From positions 1 to 64,000 of the forward strand of contig JAJYJI010000001.1 of the NCBI GenBank assembly GCA_021789605.1: a stretch of DNA of 64,000 bases. The letters are read 5' to 3'. Positions 25,971 through 38,802 of the stretch are shown piece after piece. Position 1 is the stretch's first letter; every line of letters starts with the position of its first letter. Origin of the DNA: a bacterium (GTDB taxonomy: Bacteria > SZUA-79 > Acidulodesulfobacterales > Acidulodesulfobacteraceae). The position numbers were made by a program, and so were the translations under genes. The notes under the pieces are model-generated. The model was not told the DNA's origin, made no database searches, and worked only from the letters and a program-made list of their open reading frames with translations.

Positions 25971-27152
25971 TTGAAGATAGAGCAAAGCAGGCCGTCGGCA
26001 GAATCGATGCTGAACAGAATAAAGTATTCCACCCATGAATCCCAAAATGTTTTCAGGGTTTACTTGGGTTCCGCCCCCGGAACCGGCAAAACTTATACAA
26101 TGCTTGAAGACGGAAACTATCTGCTGGAGCACGGCATAGACACCGTCATAGGGTACGTCGAAACTCACGGCAGAAAAGAAACCGCAGAAGAGGTCAAGAA
26201 ACTCGAAATTATTCCGCGAAAAAAAATATCGTACAGGGGCTCGGAATTCGAAGAGCTCGATGCCGATGCGGTTATTGCCAGAAAACCTGCTATCGCTTTA
26301 ATAGACGAACTTGCCCATAATAACATCCCCGGTTCTAAAAATTTAAAGCGTTATCAAGACGCGATAGAAATATATAAGTCCGGCATAAGCATATTTACCA
26401 CCTTAAATATATTCCATCTTAATTCCATTGCGGAGAGGGTCGAGGCGGAACTAGGGATTAAAGTCGGCGAAAGGGTTCCCGATTATATATTAAATTTCGT
26501 TACGGAAATTATAAACGTCGATATTCCGGCCGGCGAGCTCATTAACAGGCTTAAAGAAGGAAAAATTTATTCTATGGAAAAAGTCCCCCTTGCCTTAGAA
26601 AACTTTTTTAAGCTCGACAATCTTTTAATATTAAGAGAGCTTGCTTTAAGAACAATTGCCGACGAACTTAGCGCCCAGTCCACCGGAATCGGAAATCCCG
26701 ATGAAAAACTGGAATTAAAGTCAAACGAAAAGGTTCTGGTCCTGATAAGCTCGAATCCGGATTCGGCAAGGCTCGTAAGAATAGGTTCCAAGCTTGCGGG
26801 CAGGCTCAATTCAAATTTTTACGTCCTGCACGTAAATCTTAAAAATAGAAATAAAACTAAAAAAAAATCGGAAGATTACGACAGGACTCTTTCCCGCAAT
26901 ATTTCAATCGCCGAAAATCTCGGCGCGGCGGTTTTCAGTTTTCAGTCGGAAGACGTGTCGTCGGGCGTAGTAGATTTTGTTAACGGCAACAATATATCCC
27001 ATATCGTCATAGGCGCGACAAACGAGAAAAGAAGTTTTATCGGCAGGATTTTTAAAAAAAGCATAGTCGCAAAATTAATAGAAAAACTTCCCAACGTTTC
27101 ATTTCACGTAGTTCCGCCCCGCCCGCTTCCGTCCCGCCCGCTTTCAGTTTAG
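25971..27152 (+). CDS. KdpD N-terminal sensor plus USP-like domain protein, no histidine kinase
   Basis: TTG start; VYLGSAPGTGKTYTMLEDG...DTVIGYVETHGR...IALIDELAHNNIPGSKNLKRYQD, then USP-like segment; ORF stops at 393 aa. Confidence 0.9.
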   Translation: MKIEQSRPSAESMLNRIKYSTHESQNVFRVYLGSAPGTGKTYTMLEDGNYLLEHGIDTVIGYVETHGRKETAEEVKKLEIIPRKKISYRGSEFEELDADAVIARKPAIALIDELAHNNIPGSKNLKRYQDAIEIYKSGISIFTTLNIFHLNSIAERVEAELGIKVGERVPDYILNFVTEIINVDIPAGELINRLKEGKIYSMEKVPLALENFFKLDNLLILRELALRTIADELSAQSTGIGNPDEKLELKSNEKVLVLISSNPDSARLVRIGSKLAGRLNSNFYVLHVNLKNRNKTKKKSEDYDRTLSRNISIAENLGAAVFSFQSEDVSSGVVDFVNGNNISHIVIGATNEKRSFIGRIFKKSIVAKLIEKLPNVSFHVVPPRPLPSRPLSV

Positions 27153-27475: not shown

Positions 27476-30049
27476 ATGAAATTAATGGACGATAACGAAA
27501 TTAAGGAAGATATTTCAGAAGACTCCGCGGGAAGCTCAGCGGGAGGCGCAACAGCTCCCGCAACGACTATAACCGGCGTTATAAAAAGAGTAATATTTCA
27601 AAATGCCGGAAACGGCTTTATTATATTAAACATATTTTCCGGCGGCAGATTTATAACCGCCTCCGGCACCTTTTTCGATAAGCCTTTATTGGATTCAAAA
27701 GTTAAATTGACCGGAGGCTTTACCCACCATAAAAAATACGGCTATCAGTTTAATTTTGACCGGTACGAACTTGCGCTTTCAAACACAAAAACCGCGATAA
27801 TCGATTATTTATCTTCAGACGTATTTAAAGGCATAGGCAAGGTTATAGCGGGAGAGATTTATGAAAAATTCGGGGAAAAGACGCTGGATATAATAGACAA
27901 CGAACCGGAAAAACTGAGGGACGTCGGCGGAATAGGCAGGATAAAACTTGCTACGATACTAGAAGGGCTCAAAGAAAGCTACGGTTTAAGAAAGGCTATT
28001 ATGTTTTTTAAGCCTCATCAGTTCAGCGACTATCAGATAAAAACTATTTATAACAGATTTAAAGATAAATCCATAGCCGTCGCCGAGGAAAATCCTTTTA
28101 TGTTTACCGAAATAAAAGGCATAGGATTTAAAAAAGCCGACATTATGGCTGAAAAACTGGGGATACAAAAAGACGACCCTAACAGAATTAAAGAAGCCGT
28201 AAAGTATGTTTTGGGCCAGATATGCGAAAATTCAGGAAACTGTTATGTCTATTATAAAGACTTAAGGCATGGCATGAAAGAAATTATAGAAAATTTGAGC
28301 GAAACGGAACTTAAGAAATATTTGAACGATCTGATAAAAGAAAGGACGATACTGCCGGAATTTGAAAGCCTGCCAGAATTAAAAACGCAAGCGTCTGCGC
28401 ATGGCGGACTGCCGGATTTAACCGCGCTAAAAGAAGACGGCCTCTTAAACCGCATAAAAATTTATGCCCCCGTTTATTATTACAGCGAACTTGGGATATC
28501 GAAGGAACTGAAAAGGATTTCAGGATATAACGAATCCACGGCAGGAAACAATACGGAAGGAAACGAAGGCCTTATTGAATTTCTTGGGCGGAACGCTAAT
28601 AAAATAGCTCTTACGGACGAACAAAAAATTGCGGTATTAAACACTTTAAACTATAAGATTTCGATTATATCCGGAGGCCCGGGTACAGGAAAATCGACAG
28701 TGATTAAGACTATATCCGGCTTATATAAGGGAAAAAAAATAGCGCTTACCTCGCTGTCCGGAAAAGCCGCGCAGAGGCTTTCCGATATCGTAAAACCCGG
28801 ATACGGGGAATACGACGAAATAAAAGCCGATATTTCAACCATTCACAGGCTTTTAAAAGCTCAGTACGACTGGCAGACCAACGAAACGTTTTTTACTTAT
28901 AACGAAAACAACAGGCTTCCCCACGACCTAATCGTCGTAGACGAAATGAGCATGGCGGACGCGGTTATTTTTTACAAACTTTTAAAAGCCGTAAAAAACG
29001 GCGCGGTTTTAGTTTTGGTCGGCGACGTCAACCAGATACCTTCCGTAGGCCCCGGAGATGTTCTTAGAGACCTGATATATGCGGCGGGAAAAGAAGAAGC
29101 CGCCATAAATACCGTTTCCGATAAAATCAACCAGTTTTTTCCGGTAACATTCCTGACCAAGGTATTCAGGCAGGACGAAGGCGGCTTGATAAATTTAAAT
29201 GCCCATAACCTCCTAAACAACAAAAGATTTGCCGCCGGAGGAAAAGAAAGGGGCAAAAAGGAGTTCATTATAAAATACAAAAGAGAATACGACGCCGCGG
29301 ACACAGGTAAAAATGAGCTGTTAAAAGACTTTATCGAATTTGTAAAAAAAATATGCGATAAAAGAAGGAATAAAAAAACAAGCGAAAATGAACCCGCCGG
29401 AGGCTATAATACCTTAAAAACGTCCGTTTTCGACGATATTCAGGTTTTAACGCCTATGAGAAAAGGCGAGCTGGGATATAACAATTTAAATAAAATGCTG
29501 CAGGATTTGTTTAACCCTTTGGGCGACGCCGCTTCCGTTTCCGGCGCGGACTGCACGGTTCAGCCTCAAGACGTCTTTATCTGCAACGGAACCCAATTCC
29601 GGCTATACGACAGGGTAATACAAAAGAAAAATAATTACGACCTGGACGTATTTAACGGCGATACGGGCTATATCGTAAATATAGACCACGCGGAAAAAAC
29701 TTTATCCGTGGATTTTACCGGTTCGTCTGCCGAAACGGCCGCGGGGAGCAGCGGCAGAAAAATAATAATATTTGACTTTCTTGATATTTACGAAAATATA
29801 ATGCTCGCTTACGCGCTCTCCGTCCATAAAGCCCAAGGCAGCGAGTTTAATAACGTTATAATTTTATTTCATCAGACGCATTACATGATGCTGAAAAAAA
29901 ATTTATTATATACGGCCATAACGCGGGGGAAGAAAAACGTCGTTATTTTCGGAACGTTTAAAGCATTCGGCATTGCAATGAATTCAAGGGAAGAAAAGAG
30001 AAACTCCGGTTTAAAAGACCGCCTTGCCGAAGCATTTAGAAATGGATAG
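27476..30049 (+). CDS. RecD2-like ATP-dependent DNA helicase
   Basis: ISGGPGTGKSTVIKTI...VVDEMSMADAVIFYKLL...LVGDVNQIPSVGPGDVL...YALSVHKAQGSEF. Confidence 0.93.
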   Translation: MKLMDDNEIKEDISEDSAGSSAGGATAPATTITGVIKRVIFQNAGNGFIILNIFSGGRFITASGTFFDKPLLDSKVKLTGGFTHHKKYGYQFNFDRYELALSNTKTAIIDYLSSDVFKGIGKVIAGEIYEKFGEKTLDIIDNEPEKLRDVGGIGRIKLATILEGLKESYGLRKAIMFFKPHQFSDYQIKTIYNRFKDKSIAVAEENPFMFTEIKGIGFKKADIMAEKLGIQKDDPNRIKEAVKYVLGQICENSGNCYVYYKDLRHGMKEIIENLSETELKKYLNDLIKERTILPEFESLPELKTQASAHGGLPDLTALKEDGLLNRIKIYAPVYYYSELGISKELKRISGYNESTAGNNTEGNEGLIEFLGRNANKIALTDEQKIAVLNTLNYKISIISGGPGTGKSTVIKTISGLYKGKKIALTSLSGKAAQRLSDIVKPGYGEYDEIKADISTIHRLLKAQYDWQTNETFFTYNENNRLPHDLIVVDEMSMADAVIFYKLLKAVKNGAVLVLVGDVNQIPSVGPGDVLRDLIYAAGKEEAAINTVSDKINQFFPVTFLTKVFRQDEGGLINLNAHNLLNNKRFAAGGKERGKKEFIIKYKREYDAADTGKNELLKDFIEFVKKICDKRRNKKTSENEPAGGYNTLKTSVFDDIQVLTPMRKGELGYNNLNKMLQDLFNPLGDAASVSGADCTVQPQDVFICNGTQFRLYDRVIQKKNNYDLDVFNGDTGYIVNIDHAEKTLSVDFTGSSAETAAGSSGRKIIIFDFLDIYENIMLAYALSVHKAQGSEFNNVIILFHQTHYMMLKKNLLYTAITRGKKNVVIFGTFKAFGIAMNSREEKRNSGLKDRLAEAFRNG

Positions 30050-30383
30050 AGGGTTCGAACCCCTATTGCACCGATTTATATTCTTACTTTGCGTATATCG
30101 CGTTTTAACTGGCTTAAGAGAGAGGGATGAGCGTCCTTTGGACGCTAAAAGCGGCGAACTTCCTCTTGCGGGCTTCGCCCTGCGAGGGTTCGAACCCCTA
30201 TTGCACCGATTTATATTCTTACTTTGCGTATATCGCGTTTTAACTGGCTTAAGAGAGAGGGATGAGCGTCCTTTGGACGCTAAAAGCGGCGAACTTCCTC
30301 TTGCGGGCTTCGCCCTGCGAGGGTTCGAACCCCTATTGCACCGATTTATATTCTTACTTTGCGTATATCGCGTTTTAACTGGC
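30049..30383 (-). repeat. 135-bp tandem repeat, about 2.5 copies, abutting tRNA-Ser
   Basis: GAGGGTTCGAACCCCTATTGCACC... starts at 30049, 30184 and 30319; copies appear identical. Confidence 0.95.
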
Positions 30384-30474
30384 GGAGAGAGAGGGATTCG
30401 AACCCTCGGTACATCTATTAGGACATACATTCGCTTAGCAGGCGAACGCCTTCGACCTACTCGGCCATCTCTCC
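30380..30474 (-). tRNA. tRNA-Ser(GCU), CCA encoded
   Basis: Minus: GGAGAGATGGCCGAGTAGGTCGAAGGCGTTCGCCTGCTAAGCGAATG...CGAGGGTTCGAATCCCTCTCTCTCCGCCA, long variable arm, GCT anticodon. Confidence 0.95.
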
Positions 30475-33447: not shown

Positions 33448-35175
33448 TTAAAAAAGATGCCCCCGCATTAGCGCAAAATGCTCGGCAACGGGACCTAAGG
33501 CAAGCGCGGGAAAAAATGTCAGTGCCCCGATTAAAATTATAGTCCCCATTACTACGAAATAAAAAAGCGGTCCGTGAGCCGGAAACGTACCGGAAGATTC
33601 GGGAACGCTTTTCTTTTTAATTAAAGAACCGGCTATCGCCACCTGGCAGATTATCGGCACGTATCTTCCCAGAAAAATTACAACGCCCAGTATTACGTTA
33701 TAGAAAACCGTGGCTCCGTTAAATCCGGCCATTGCCGAACCGTTGTTCGCGACCGCAGAGGCAAAGGCGTATAAGATTTCGCTGAAACCGTGCGGACCGG
33801 GGTTGGCAGTCGTTCCCGCCGCGAGGCCTGCCGGAACGGAAAGGGCTAAGGCAAAAGGGACTATTATTATAAAGGCATGGGCAAACATAGCCAGCGTTGC
33901 GAGCTTAACTTCTTTCGACTCTATTTTCTTACCAAGAAATTCTGGCGTACGTCCAACCATAAGGCCGGCGATAAATACCCCGATAATAACCATAGCAAGC
34001 ATATTTAATAAACCGACTCCAATCCCGCCGAATATAAGATTCAGCATCATTTCGCCAAGAAGAACCGCCGCCGAAGCCGGCATATAGCTGTCGTGGGCGC
34101 TGTCCACGTTTCCGGTGGTAAACGCCGTAGTGGCGGCGGCAAACATGGAACTTTGCGCGATGCCTATATGTTCTTCCTTGCCGGTCATATTTCCTCCCGG
34201 ATTATACTTTGAGGCGCGGACCGCGGCTCCTAATTTTGCCAAAAAGGGATTGCCGGCGGCTTCCTGACGGTATATAGTAAAGATACATACCGCCAGAAGC
34301 GTGAGCGCGACAAGAAACAGTGAAAAGGCGTGTTTTTTATCTTTTATCATTATTCCGTACATAAAAAATATCGCCGTCGGAATAACGCCCATCATAAATA
34401 TGAGCAGGGCGTTGGTAAACGGGGTAGGGTTTTCATAAGGCTGCGCCGCGTTTGCGTTGTAAAAACCGCCGCCGTTGGTACCGATGTTTTCTATCGAAAC
34501 CATGGAAGCCACGGGTCCTACCGAAAGCAATTGCGTTGCCCCAGTCATATCGACGACCTTCTTTTGCATCTTAAAAGTTTGGGGAGAACCCATAAAAAGC
34601 ATAATTACGGCGAATACGACCGCCAGAGGAATGAAAATCCTATATAAGGCTTTTATAAAGTCCGGATAAAAACCGCCCACATTTTTTGCCTGCGTTTTTG
34701 CCAATCCTCTTATAAACGCAATTAAAAAGACCAGTCCGGTAGCCGCAGACGTAAACTGCAAAAAGACTAAGGCCATCTGGGAAAAATTAGACAGCGCGGC
34801 TTCCCCCGCATAGTTTTGCCAGTTCGTATTGGTAACAAAACTTATAGCAGTATTGAAATCAAGCGCCCAAGGAATGCCTTTATAATGCATCTGGTTGAAA
34901 GGAAGATAATTCTGAAATCTTAAGATGATAAAAACCAATGCAAGCATAAAAAAATTTGCGGTTAATCCGGTTTTAAGATACGTCAGCCAGTCCGTTTCCT
35001 CTTTTTCGTTCAGCTTAAGAAATTTAAACGTAAGATTTTCCGCAGGATTTGCTATCTTATCAAAAAAAGTAGCTTCCCCGTTAAAAATATGCGCCATATA
35101 TCTGCTTAAAGGGATGCTTGCCGAAATTATAGCCGAGAGCACGATAACGATTTGTAAAACGCCGGCGATATCCAT
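33448..35175 (-). CDS. kdpA: potassium-transporting ATPase subunit A
   Basis: LTYLKTGLTANFFMLALVF...VSIENIGTNGGGFYNANAAQPYENPTPFTN. Confidence 0.97.
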   Translation of the reverse strand: MDIAGVLQIVIVLSAIISASIPLSRYMAHIFNGEATFFDKIANPAENLTFKFLKLNEKEETDWLTYLKTGLTANFFMLALVFIILRFQNYLPFNQMHYKGIPWALDFNTAISFVTNTNWQNYAGEAALSNFSQMALVFLQFTSAATGLVFLIAFIRGLAKTQAKNVGGFYPDFIKALYRIFIPLAVVFAVIMLFMGSPQTFKMQKKVVDMTGATQLLSVGPVASMVSIENIGTNGGGFYNANAAQPYENPTPFTNALLIFMMGVIPTAIFFMYGIMIKDKKHAFSLFLVALTLLAVCIFTIYRQEAAGNPFLAKLGAAVRASKYNPGGNMTGKEEHIGIAQSSMFAAATTAFTTGNVDSAHDSYMPASAAVLLGEMMLNLIFGGIGVGLLNMLAMVIIGVFIAGLMVGRTPEFLGKKIESKEVKLATLAMFAHAFIIIVPFALALSVPAGLAAGTTANPGPHGFSEILYAFASAVANNGSAMAGFNGATVFYNVILGVVIFLGRYVPIICQVAIAGSLIKKKSVPESSGTFPAHGPLFYFVVMGTIILIGALTFFPALALGPVAEHFALMRGHLF

Positions 35176-35262: not shown

Positions 35263-35349
35263 TCAAATCTTTTCCAAAAAATCTATTAACAGCCGCATTG
35301 CGGCATACATTATACCTATGGACAGCAGGGCGGCGAGCGAATCAATCAT
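35263..35349 (-). CDS. 28-aa single-TM peptide between kdpF and kdpA
   Basis: MIDSLAALLSIGIMYAAMRLLIDFLEKI*, preceded by AGGAGG-type RBS. Confidence 0.7.
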   Translation of the reverse strand: MIDSLAALLSIGIMYAAMRLLIDFLEKI

Positions 35350-35368: not shown

Positions 35369-35455
35369 TTAAAATTTATCGGGATGGATTAGGACGTAGA
35401 AGAGATACGCCAGCACCAACGCCGAAACCGCTAAAAGAATAATATTTTCAATCAT
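35369..35455 (-). CDS. kdpF: KdpF-like 28-aa peptide
   Basis: MIENIILLAVSALVLAYLFYVLIHPDKF*, KdpF-type hydrophobic peptide ending in a short polar tail. Confidence 0.82.
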   Translation of the reverse strand: MIENIILLAVSALVLAYLFYVLIHPDKF

Positions 35456-35537
35456 AAAAACCTCATTATGCAAACTCCGGTTTAATTTATATTTTAATTC
35501 GGGAACGATTCAGGAAGACAGAAAAATCGGCAAAAAA

Positions 35538-35567
35538 AATAGCCGAAAGAAATTGGCTTCGGCTATT
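35538..35567 (-). terminator. intrinsic terminator in the kdp leader
   Basis: Minus strand AATAGCCGAA-GCCAATTTCT-TTCGGCTATT followed by T8 (stem adjacent to the poly-A at 35532-35539 on plus). Confidence 0.82.
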
Positions 35568-35721
35568 AAAGTGTCTTCATTTAAATTTAAATTGAATATT
35601 TACTAAAACGATAATATGCGCAATAACTAACGGCGGCGCAACTAACGGCGATATGAACGCTTTGCCGCAAAGGCGCATTGAATTGCAATACGCCTGCGAT
35701 TAAGAAGGCATTACGATATTT

Positions 35722-35855
35722 TTGATTCCCTTTAATAGCTTGCGAAGTTAGCTGGCGGGCTGGGGATAAAGAGTAGTCCCCTGCATTCCTGAAAATGCAT
35801 TAGCCCCGGATTAACGGTTCCTCCGCTTCCGCGATATTGCGGAATTAAGCTTTGT
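35722..35855 (-). ncRNA. ydaO/yuaA-type c-di-AMP riboswitch (candidate)
   Basis: Minus: GCTTAATTCCGCAATATCGCGGAAGCGGAGGAACCGTTAATCCGGGGCTAATGC...GGGGACTACTCTTTATCCCCAGCCCGCCAGCTAACTTCGCAAGC...GGGAATC; matches ydaO conserved blocks (GGAACC, GGGG..AA, CUUU, GCCCG.CAGCUAAC..CG.A.GC). Confidence 0.82.
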
Positions 35856-35953
35856 TTAGTTTAATTGTCAAAGAACTATCGAACCGAACGGTCGGGCGGT
35901 TATAATATTTTACCGCCTTTACGGTTTATATTTATCTTAATATACTATATGCG

Positions 35954-35982
35954 AATATACATCTTTGAAAAAACGTTGTCAA
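35954..35982 (-). promoter_or_regulatory. promoter of kdp leader
   Basis: TTGACA-17 nt-TATATT on minus strand. Confidence 0.7.
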
Positions 35983-36115: not shown

Positions 36116-37360
36116 TTAACTTGCGGAAATTTTTACTCCGTTCCTCATTCTGCCGTATGCATAAACTCCGGCGGTCAGAATAACGTTTGTAATTATAATT
36201 ACAAGAAAAGCGTATTCCGGAAAATCTTTAGTGCCTGGTATTCCCGCATTTAAAGGCATATATGCCATTATAGCCGTAGCCAATGCCCTTCCTATCATCG
36301 ACCATAGGAAAAATTTTTCTTTTTTCGGCAGTCTCTCTTCCTGCTTTTTCTTGAAATTTTCCATAAAAAATACCGCCGATACGCTTAAATATCTTCCTAT
36401 GGCCAGCATAATTATTATAATCAAGAGCCTGTCTATAAAATCCCAGCCGATATGGGACAATTGAACCACTACTCCGAGAAAAACAAAAAATAAGGTTCTT
36501 ATTAAAAACGAAAATTCAAAATTAAACTGTTTAATAATAGATTCTTTTATGCTCATCTTAAAGAAATTCAGTTTAAGCCTGTTCAATAATTCTTCGTTTC
36601 CCATTATTATTCCGAATACCAGTATCGCAATAGCGCCGTTTCCTTTAATTAAATGAATTAATAAATAAAGAATCAGCATTCCGCCGAAAGTAATCGAATA
36701 TGCAAATTTTGTTTTAGATATAAACTTTAAAATTATAAACCACGATATTCCGAATAAAACCGCAACCGCGGCGGATATTCCAAAAGAATAGAGCAGCGAC
36801 GCGGCTTTGGATAAATAATTTATGCGAATGGACGAATTTTCGGCAAAATGGATTAAAACGATTAAAATGAGGATGGCAAACGCATCGTTAAAAGTGGATT
36901 CTATGGCTATTACGGTCTTATTTTTATCGCTTGCGCCGATATTAGGCAAAAGAGGCATGATAACCGTGGAACTAGAACACGACAATACCGTTCCGAGCAT
37001 AAGGGATTGCATTATATCGCCGCCGCCCATTATATAGAAGAATCCGCCCGCCAATATTATGGAAAAGGCCAAACCAGCAGTTATTAAAACAATTGAGTAT
37101 GCCGAATTCTTGAAAACGGTTATGAAATTAAGCTCAAGTCCCCCGGAAAACATAATGAGAATTAAAACCAGCGTGCTCAGGTAAGGCGCAAAATCGATAA
37201 ACAACTGCTGGTTAAAGATATGGTAAATAGGCCCAAGTATAATGCCAGCAAACATTAACAGCAGAATAGACGGAAATTTAGTGTATGAGAAAAATATCTC
37301 TCCTAGGAAACCTAAAATTATAACTATCCCTATTATTCCTATGGCTATCGAAGGGCTCAT
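36116..37360 (-). CDS. cation:proton antiporter (CPA family)
   Basis: 414 aa multi-TM, LGFLGEIFFSYTKFPSILLLMFAGIILGPI...GAIAILVFGIIMGN...ESTFNDAFAILILIV. Confidence 0.88.
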   Translation of the reverse strand: MSPSIAIGIIGIVIILGFLGEIFFSYTKFPSILLLMFAGIILGPIYHIFNQQLFIDFAPYLSTLVLILIMFSGGLELNFITVFKNSAYSIVLITAGLAFSIILAGGFFYIMGGGDIMQSLMLGTVLSCSSSTVIMPLLPNIGASDKNKTVIAIESTFNDAFAILILIVLIHFAENSSIRINYLSKAASLLYSFGISAAVAVLFGISWFIILKFISKTKFAYSITFGGMLILYLLIHLIKGNGAIAILVFGIIMGNEELLNRLKLNFFKMSIKESIIKQFNFEFSFLIRTLFFVFLGVVVQLSHIGWDFIDRLLIIIIMLAIGRYLSVSAVFFMENFKKKQEERLPKKEKFFLWSMIGRALATAIMAYMPLNAGIPGTKDFPEYAFLVIIITNVILTAGVYAYGRMRNGVKISAS

Positions 37361-37494
37361 ATGCTATATTTTATAGCCTTTTTAATAAAAATGTTCAGCG
37401 AATCTCTGCAATATCTTTGGAATCTATCTTTTGCCTTACGTCTGATATTTCGTCCATGCCCTTCAAAAAAGCGTTAAAAAGGAATTTTTATTTT

Positions 37495-38802
37495 TTAAAA
37501 TAAAAAAATTTTCAGATATAAACCAAGCAAAGTTATAAAAAGAACCGGTATAGTAATGAACAATCCGACTTTCATATAATAGCCCCACGTTATTTTAATT
37601 CCTTTTCTTTCCAGAACGTTCAGCCACAATAAAGTCGCAAGCGAACCTATCGGCGTTAATTTCGGACCGAGGTCGCAGCCGATAACGTTGGCGTAAACGG
37701 ATGGCCTAAGCATTGCTTCGTTAAGATGCGCCGAATGGATGGCAAGGGAGTTTATCATCACGGTAGGCATATTGTTCATAACCGACGATACGAAGGCCGC
37801 GAGATAACCGGCGTACATGGTAAGAACGAAAGCGCCGAAGCCGGCAAAATAAATAATGGATTTTCCGAGCAGATATGTCAAGCCGGCGTTTTTTAATCCG
37901 AAAACGACTAAATACATTCCTATGGAAAATACCACTATGTTCCACGGCGCATTCTTAAATACGGTCCTTAAATTAACGGCGGGGCTTTTACAGCCGAACA
38001 ATATAAATATCAATGCAAAAAATATAGCGAAAATAGAAACGGGGAGTTTTAAAAATTCGCTTAAAAAATATCCTCCTAGAAGCAGAGCCAATATAAAGAA
38101 AGATAATTTAAAAAGCGCGGGGTCCTTTATTGCATCTTTGGGGTTTTTTAAAAGGCTTGCGTCATAGTTTTTGGGAATATCCTTTCTGAAATAGACGTAT
38201 AAGGCCAGCAGGGATATCGCTATAGAAAATAAATCCGGCGCATACATATCCATAAAATACGTAAAAAAACCGATATTAAAATAATCCGCGGAAACGATGT
38301 TGACTAAATTGGAAATCTTAAACGGAAGGCTTGCCGCATCCGCGATGAATCCGCCGGCCATAATAAACGGGAGCATATTTTTTCTATCAAATTTCAGGGC
38401 TTTCATCTTTTCGTAAACTATCGGCGTTATAATAAGCGCCGCTCCGTCGTTGGCAAAAAGAGCCGATACCAAGGCGCCCAGAATGACCACGTAAACAAAC
38501 ATCTTCCGTCCGCTGCCGCCGGCAAATTTGGCCATATGCAAAGCCGCCCATTCAAAAAAACCTATTTCGTCGAGTATTATGGAAATAATTATTATTGCGA
38601 CAAAAGTAAACGTCGCATCCCAGACTATATCGAAAACCTTTATTACGTCTTTGACGACTATTACGTTAAAAAAAAGGGAGAGCAGCGCTCCTATAATTGC
38701 GCTGTAGCCTATTCCGATATTAAAAGGTTTTTTAATTATAAGGAAGAGGGTGAATAAAAATATCAGAGAGGAAGCCGCGATTAAATAACCGTAAAAATGC
38801 AT
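37495..38802 (-). CDS. arsB: ArsB-type arsenite efflux permease
   Basis: FANDGAALIITPIVYEKMKAL...NLVNIVSADYFNIGF...SSVMNNMPTVMINSLAI...NVIGCDLGPKLTPIGSLATLLWL. Confidence 0.93.
   Translation of the reverse strand: MHFYGYLIAASSLIFLFTLFLIIKKPFNIGIGYSAIIGALLSLFFNVIVVKDVIKVFDIVWDATFTFVAIIIISIILDEIGFFEWAALHMAKFAGGSGRKMFVYVVILGALVSALFANDGAALIITPIVYEKMKALKFDRKNMLPFIMAGGFIADAASLPFKISNLVNIVSADYFNIGFFTYFMDMYAPDLFSIAISLLALYVYFRKDIPKNYDASLLKNPKDAIKDPALFKLSFFILALLLGGYFLSEFLKLPVSIFAIFFALIFILFGCKSPAVNLRTVFKNAPWNIVVFSIGMYLVVFGLKNAGLTYLLGKSIIYFAGFGAFVLTMYAGYLAAFVSSVMNNMPTVMINSLAIHSAHLNEAMLRPSVYANVIGCDLGPKLTPIGSLATLLWLNVLERKGIKITWGYYMKVGLFITIPVLFITLLGLYLKIFLF

What the first reader, a model, noticed from the sequence alone, without database searches (positions are those of the whole stretch)
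35369..35982. Complete c-di-AMP-type riboswitch control unit ahead of kdp
On the minus strand, in order: promoter TTGACA-17-TATATT (35954-35982), a leader whose conserved blocks match the ydaO/yuaA class (35722-35855), an intrinsic terminator with a 10-bp stem and T8 (35538-35567), then kdpF. No kdpE or full-length kdpD is in the window. ydaO riboswitches are established c-di-AMP sensors, and control of kdp by one is known in Bacillus. Seeing this in a Gram-negative (LPS-producing) genome, with an apparent transcriptional OFF switch about 150 nt downstream of the aptamer, is worth testing.
Basis: partly seen in the sequence, partly recalled or inferred. Interest (0 to 1): 0.72.

Follow-up and report, generated by a model that had tools for sequence, protein, structure and literature searches.

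The report
c-di-AMP riboswitch controlling kdp potassium pump
In an uncultured, acid-dwelling, outer-membrane bacterium the genes for a potassium pump sit behind an RNA switch that most likely turns them off when the signal molecule c-di-AMP is high, an arrangement proven in Bacillus and described as restricted to its relatives, but which we find across this family and in a few other bacterial lineages.

Summary
The minus strand carries a consensus promoter, a strong RF00379 (ydaO/c-di-AMP) aptamer (35861-35721, 88.2 bits, gathering score 38), an intrinsic terminator (35567-35538) and then kdpF-x-kdpA-kdpC-kdpB. The missing piece, an anti-terminator, is also there: GCUAUUAAAG in the aptamer's closing strand and 3' tail pairs perfectly with CUUUAAUAGC, which overlaps the terminator's 5' arm. 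This pairing (10-12 bp) is kept in 18 of 18 family leaders, although the spacer varies about five-fold. The genome has CdaA/CdaR/GlmM, PgpH and NrnA. It has no full-length KdpD, only a short KdpD-Usp protein with no histidine-kinase part. All of this fits a transcriptional OFF switch, as shown experimentally for kdp in Bacillus thuringiensis. The 2019 survey called riboswitch-kdp restricted to Bacillales. Here it is common in the family of Ca. Acididesulfobacter and occurs in four unrelated LpxC-positive genomes of a wider sample. A Gram-negative host is not unusual in itself: 37 of 42 sampled RF00379 carriers have LpxC. Verdict: a new member of a known kind in a new group, moderate interest. 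Ligand binding and termination remain untested. A conserved 28-aa ORF between kdpF and kdpA is a useful side lead.

The parts
35954..35982 (-). sigma-70-type promoter TTGACA-17-TATATT
   Evidence: 11 of 12 consensus; a comparable promoter found ahead of the aptamer in 13 of 14 related leaders tested
35721..35861 (-). c-di-AMP (ydaO/yuaA, RF00379) riboswitch aptamer
   Evidence: cmscan 88.2 bits, E 2.8e-19, full-length match
35730..35739 (-). anti-terminator 5' half GCUAUUAAAG: overlaps the aptamer's P1 3' strand and 3' tail
   Evidence: perfect 10-bp complement to 35571-35562; a further 5 bp (35747-35743 with 35561-35557) across a CAA bulge, duplex -14.5 kcal/mol
35557..35571 (-). anti-terminator 3' half, overlapping the 5' arm of the terminator
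35532..35567 (-). intrinsic terminator: stem-loop 35567-35538 plus T8
   Evidence: stem -12.6 kcal/mol
35369..35455 (-). kdpF (28 aa)
   Evidence: PF09604 1.8e-9
35263..35349 (-). conserved 28-aa hydrophobic ORF (smX) between kdpF and kdpA, with Shine-Dalgarno AAGGAGG
   Evidence: no Pfam hit; only a sub-cutoff NCBIfam hit; equivalent 28-29 aa ORF in 15 of 15 family kdp operons checked
33448..35175 (-). kdpA
   Evidence: TIGR00680 608.9 bits
32733..33392 (-). kdpC
   Evidence: PF02669 191 bits
30606..32657 (-). kdpB, with the TGES motif whose Ser162 is the regulatory phosphorylation site in E. coli
   Evidence: TIGR01497 1038 bits; TGES at 159-162
25971..27152 (+). short KdpD (KdpD N-terminal domain plus Usp, no transmembrane or kinase part); here detached and facing the kdp operon
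   Evidence: PF02702 259 bits and Usp 26.6 bits; best NCBIfam model NF038185 KdpD_non_kinase, 345 bits (below its cut-off of 550); Walker-A-like G-X5-GKT read from the sequence

Best explanation
A sigma-70 promoter makes a leader RNA that begins with a c-di-AMP aptamer. When c-di-AMP is low (expected when K+ is scarce), the aptamer's closing strand and 3' tail (GCUAUUAAAG, extended by CUUCG) pair with the 5' arm of the downstream terminator, the terminator cannot form, and RNA polymerase reads into kdpF-x-A-C-B. When c-di-AMP is high, the ligand-bound aptamer keeps that strand in P1 and the aptamer's 3' tail, the terminator forms and the pump genes stay off. c-di-AMP is supplied by CdaA and removed by PgpH and probably NrnA. 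A separate short KdpD may add post-translational shut-off of KdpB at Ser162, as shown for Deinococcus geothermalis KdpD. Shown here: all sequence elements, their mutual exclusivity in silico, conservation across the family, presence of cyclase and phosphodiesterases, absence of full-length KdpD. Inferred: ligand identity and affinity, direction of control, K+ as the physiological input, and any role of KdpD.
For: RF00379 88 bits. Perfect 10-bp anti-terminator plus 5 bp; computed pairing probability 0.96-0.998 while the terminator 3' arm is not yet transcribed and 0.004 afterwards, when the terminator reaches 0.998. Same pairing, 10-12 Watson-Crick bp, in 18 of 18 family leaders with a distance of 86-433 nt between aptamer core and terminator; only 22 of 20,000 composition shuffles reach 10 bp. 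Diadenylate cyclase in 27 of 30 family genomes and 19 of 19 good ones, here in a folP-cdaA-cdaR-glmM cluster; PgpH 772 aa; NrnA-like 374 aa. No KdpD transmembrane domain (DUF4118) in 30 family genomes. The experimentally proven precedent in B. thuringiensis has the same layout and direction (PMC6488665).
Against: No binding or expression data. At equilibrium the full transcript favours the terminator by about 5 kcal/mol (-111.5 versus -106.5), so the ON state relies on kinetics, as is usual for such switches. The GUGAAU core reads GCUAAU here, a departure from the consensus at two positions whose effect on affinity is unknown. The anti-terminator halves hardly vary within the family, so there is no covariation support. 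Three family kdp operons (G012, G020, G024) lack the leader.
Confidence: 0.9

Rival explanations
1. The aptamer is real but works as an ON switch, or acts mainly on translation of kdpF rather than on termination.
For: About 80 nt separate the T-run from kdpF, leaving room for other structures; direction cannot be read from sequence with certainty.
Against: The anti-terminator uses the aptamer's own closing strand, which by design couples ligand binding to termination. The pairing is conserved in 18 of 18 leaders. The kdp precedent is an OFF switch at the level of transcription (PMC6488665).
Confidence: 0.05
2. A decayed or re-specialised aptamer that no longer binds c-di-AMP (for example binds another nucleotide, or is a fixed attenuator).
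For: The GUGAAU core reads GCUAAU in the window, and the Acididesulfobacter-type leaders carry an insertion of about 150 nt that drops the Rfam score to 19-21 bits.
Against: 88 bits in the window; the CAGCUAAC and GCGGRGRAACC cores are intact; conservation over several genera; cyclase and phosphodiesterases present.
Confidence: 0.04
3. kdp is in fact controlled by an unlinked KdpE-like two-component system and the leader is secondary.
For: Deinococcus and Anabaena have a short KdpD with a separate kinase (PMC11018627). KdpE itself could not be searched specifically.
Against: No KdpD transmembrane domain in any of 30 family genomes; Wang et al. found KdpDE and a c-di-AMP riboswitch at kdp to be mutually exclusive (PMC6488665).
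Confidence: 0.08

Closest known systems
c-di-AMP riboswitch of the kdpFABC operon, Bacillus thuringiensis BMB171 (Wang et al. 2019, PMC6488665)
   Same: RF00379 aptamer, intrinsic terminator, kdpF directly downstream, truncated KdpD, no KdpDE, diadenylate cyclase
   Different: Diderm acidophile, not Bacillota; gene order F-x-A-C-B; anti-terminator sequence and spacer; short KdpD detached from the operon in this window; not tested experimentally
Short KdpD-Usp atypical serine kinase acting on KdpB Ser162 (Deinococcus geothermalis; PMC11018627)
   Same: KdpD domain with G-X5-GKT and Usp domain, no histidine kinase part; KdpB TGES with Ser162
   Different: The Firmicute Usp c-di-AMP motif (A/G/C)XSXSX2N(Y/F) is not matched literally; c-di-AMP response untested
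ydaO/kimA and ktrAB c-di-AMP riboswitches of Bacillus subtilis
   Same: Same aptamer class, OFF switch on K+ uptake genes
   Different: Different target transporter

Membership tests
RF00379 c-di-AMP (ydaO/yuaA) riboswitch | Covariance-model score above the gathering threshold over the full model | tested here: met
   88.2 versus 38 bits, positions 1-134
RF00379 c-di-AMP (ydaO/yuaA) riboswitch | Binds c-di-AMP | not testable with these tools
   Needs in-line probing or ITC
RF00379 c-di-AMP (ydaO/yuaA) riboswitch | Pseudoknot between the apical loop (ACUCUUUA here) and the 3' tail (recalled from the solved structures) | tested here: inconclusive
   7 complementary positions in the window (alignment); over 32 aptamers 71.9% of cells pair, but the register slid by one scores slightly better on cells paired and covariation
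Transcription-terminating OFF riboswitch | Intrinsic terminator between aptamer and gene | tested here: met
   35567-35538 plus T8
Transcription-terminating OFF riboswitch | Anti-terminator mutually exclusive with both aptamer P1 and terminator | tested here: met
   (in silico)
Transcription-terminating OFF riboswitch | Ligand-dependent termination | not testable with these tools
   Needs in vitro transcription
c-di-AMP-controlled kdp unit (B. thuringiensis type) | Aptamer directly upstream of kdpF and the pump genes | tested here: met
c-di-AMP-controlled kdp unit (B. thuringiensis type) | Truncated KdpD and no full-length KdpD sensor kinase | tested here: met
   Short KdpD; no DUF4118 in 30 family genomes
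c-di-AMP-controlled kdp unit (B. thuringiensis type) | No KdpE response regulator in the genome | not tested
   None seen in the window; the genome was not searched for KdpE because a general response-regulator model would not single it out
c-di-AMP-controlled kdp unit (B. thuringiensis type) | Diadenylate cyclase in the genome | tested here: met
   DAC 138 bits, CdaA-CdaR-GlmM
Short KdpD atypical serine kinase responding to c-di-AMP | Walker-A-like G-X5-GKT and KdpB Ser162 | tested here: met
   GSAPGTGKT in KdpD, TGES with S at 162 in KdpB (sequences)
Short KdpD atypical serine kinase responding to c-di-AMP | Known c-di-AMP motif in the Usp domain | tested here: not met
   Neither published motif matches exactly; the motif was derived from Firmicutes

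The most novel reading that the evidence does not exclude
In diderm lineages well outside Bacillota, Kdp has been handed over entirely to c-di-AMP: a riboswitch for transcription plus a kinase-less KdpD for pump activity, replacing KdpDE. In this acidophile family the riboswitch is the ancestral kdp control, with a genus-specific enlarged aptamer.
Probability: 0.5. Interest if true: 0.5.

Novelty: new member of a known kind. Interest (0 to 1): 0.36.

Why it matters
It shows that riboswitch control of kdp is not a Bacillales speciality, as the 2019 survey concluded and a 2024 paper repeated for Bacillota, but recurs in outer-membrane bacteria. K+ uptake is thought to help acidophiles repel protons: kdpABC and kup transcripts were reported for Ca. 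Acidulodesulfobacterales in acid mine drainage (PMC6776010). The switch would therefore tie that response to c-di-AMP. It also supplies a compact, testable set of natural variants with spacers of 86-433 nt and one enlarged aptamer.

Tried and rejected
Chance aptamer: rejected (E 2.8e-19, conserved). Absence of the aptamer in the Acididesulfobacter-like genus g2: first suggested by Rfam, then rejected, because the leaders are there with an insertion of about 150 nt. Gram-negative context as the main surprise: rejected (37 of 42 carriers have LpxC). Pseudoknot covariation across phyla: inconclusive because the register of the alignment is uncertain. Family identity of the 28-aa ORF: no match above cut-off (the follow-up Pfam failed on a bad coordinate and was not repeated); a literature search for kdpZ gave nothing useful. 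Block 2010 and Nelson 2013, the original ydaO surveys, are not held, so earlier mention of kdp outside Bacillota cannot be excluded.

Full report
What is there. The leader, read on the minus strand, holds a promoter (35982-35954), an RF00379 aptamer (35861-35721, 88.2 bits, gathering score 38, E 2.8e-19), an intrinsic terminator (35567-35538 with T8) and kdpF. Behind kdpF come a 28-aa hydrophobic ORF, kdpA, kdpC and kdpB.

The switch. By inspection and by computation, GCUAUUAAAG (35739-35730), which is the 3' strand of P1 plus the 3' tail of the aptamer, is a perfect complement of CUUUAAUAGC (35571-35562), which overlaps the 5' arm of the terminator. Five more pairs (CUUCG with CGAAG) follow after a CAA bulge, giving a duplex of -14.5 kcal/mol against -12.6 for the terminator stem. 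The CUUCG strand is also needed by the aptamer's internal helix, so anti-terminator and aptamer exclude each other, and anti-terminator and terminator exclude each other. Folding successive transcript lengths gives an anti-terminator probability of 0.96-0.998 until the terminator's 3' arm emerges, then a terminator probability of 0.998. This is standard OFF-switch anatomy: a ligand-stabilised aptamer frees the terminator.

Conservation. In 18 of 18 leaders from the family the two halves pair with 10-12 contiguous Watson-Crick bp, while the distance from the CAGCUAAC core to the terminator ranges from 86 to 433 nt. In shuffled sequence, 22 of 20,000 trials reach 10 bp. The halves themselves barely vary, so this is conservation, not covariation. 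Of 24 kdpA loci in the family, 18 have the leader (in G008 it lies on a separate contig end with kdpF), three lack it (G012, G020, G024) and three begin too close to a contig end. In genus g2, which includes Ca. Acididesulfobacter diazotrophicus AP1 (the kdpA of G021 falls at the matching coordinates of contig SGBB01000005, L034), the aptamer carries an insertion of about 150 nt in a variable arm and falls below Rfam's threshold (19-21 bits).

The second messenger. The genome has one DAC protein in a folP-cdaA-cdaR-glmM cluster (neighbours named from their sequences), a PgpH of 772 aa and an NrnA-like protein of 374 aa. DAC is present in 19 of 19 good-quality family genomes.

KdpD. PF02702 occurs in 21 of 30 family genomes, always in open frames of 213-404 aa, too short for a full-length KdpD. 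The KdpD transmembrane domain DUF4118 is in none. The window protein 25971-27152 matches NF038185 (KdpD_non_kinase) best, though below the curated cut-off. In relatives it follows kdpB in the same direction; in this window it is detached and convergent. Such short KdpDs are atypical serine kinases on KdpB Ser162, and the one from D. geothermalis is stimulated by c-di-AMP (PMC11018627). The Walker-A-like motif and Ser162 are present here, but the Firmicute c-di-AMP motif of the Usp domain is not matched, so post-translational control by c-di-AMP is possible and not shown.

How unusual. Wang et al. found riboswitch-kdp in 12 of 2990 species, all with truncated KdpD, and called it restricted to Bacillales (PMC6488665); the 2024 paper speaks of some species of Bacillota. 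In a sample of 386 genomes (30 from this family, the rest from many families), 37 genomes outside the family have KdpA above the cut-off, and 6 of these have RF00379 directly upstream on the same strand: G253, G332, G261, G293, G079 and G222. The first four have LpxC and the last two do not. Across 42 RF00379 carriers, 37 have LpxC. The Gram-negative setting is therefore not rare, while riboswitch-kdp outside Bacillota appears not to have been reported in the papers I could read; the two original ydaO surveys were not available.

Bottom line. It is a new member of a known kind, in a new group of bacteria. Ligand binding and termination still need the bench.

Noticed in passing
window 35263-35349 (-): A 28-aa hydrophobic ORF with a good Shine-Dalgarno lies between kdpF and kdpA. 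A 28-29 aa equivalent is in 15 of 15 family kdp operons, including ones without the riboswitch, and small hydrophobic ORFs also precede kdpF in two LpxC-negative genomes (G079, G222). No family model matches above cut-off; possibly an unrecognised Kdp accessory subunit.
   Followed up: partly
G000:C64 (L049), 3.5-kb contig: A second kdp operon with its own aptamer (cut off by the contig start) and the same anti-terminator. It resembles the genus, whereas the window copy is closer to G019 of another genus (kdpA 83%, kdpB 88%, versus about 76% and 82% to its own genus). Either a second copy or bin contamination (5.2%).
   Followed up: partly
L092, L090, L091, L053, L055, L056: ydaO aptamers with an insertion of about 150 nt in a variable arm, scored only 19-21 bits by Rfam or missed; such enlarged aptamers are probably under-counted in surveys.
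   Followed up: partly
window 30049-30397, overlapping tRNA-Ser 30380-30474: Tandem array, period 135, 2.6 copies, 98% identical, whose unit begins with a tRNA-3'-end-like sequence GAGGGTTCGAACCCCT: repeated partial tRNA ends beside tRNA-Ser.
   Followed up: no
window 36116-38802 (-): A cation/proton antiporter-like gene and arsB lie upstream of the kdp promoter on the same strand.
   Followed up: no
L088 (G079): Two divergent RF00379 aptamers about 420 nt apart, one ahead of kdp and one on the other strand.
   Followed up: no
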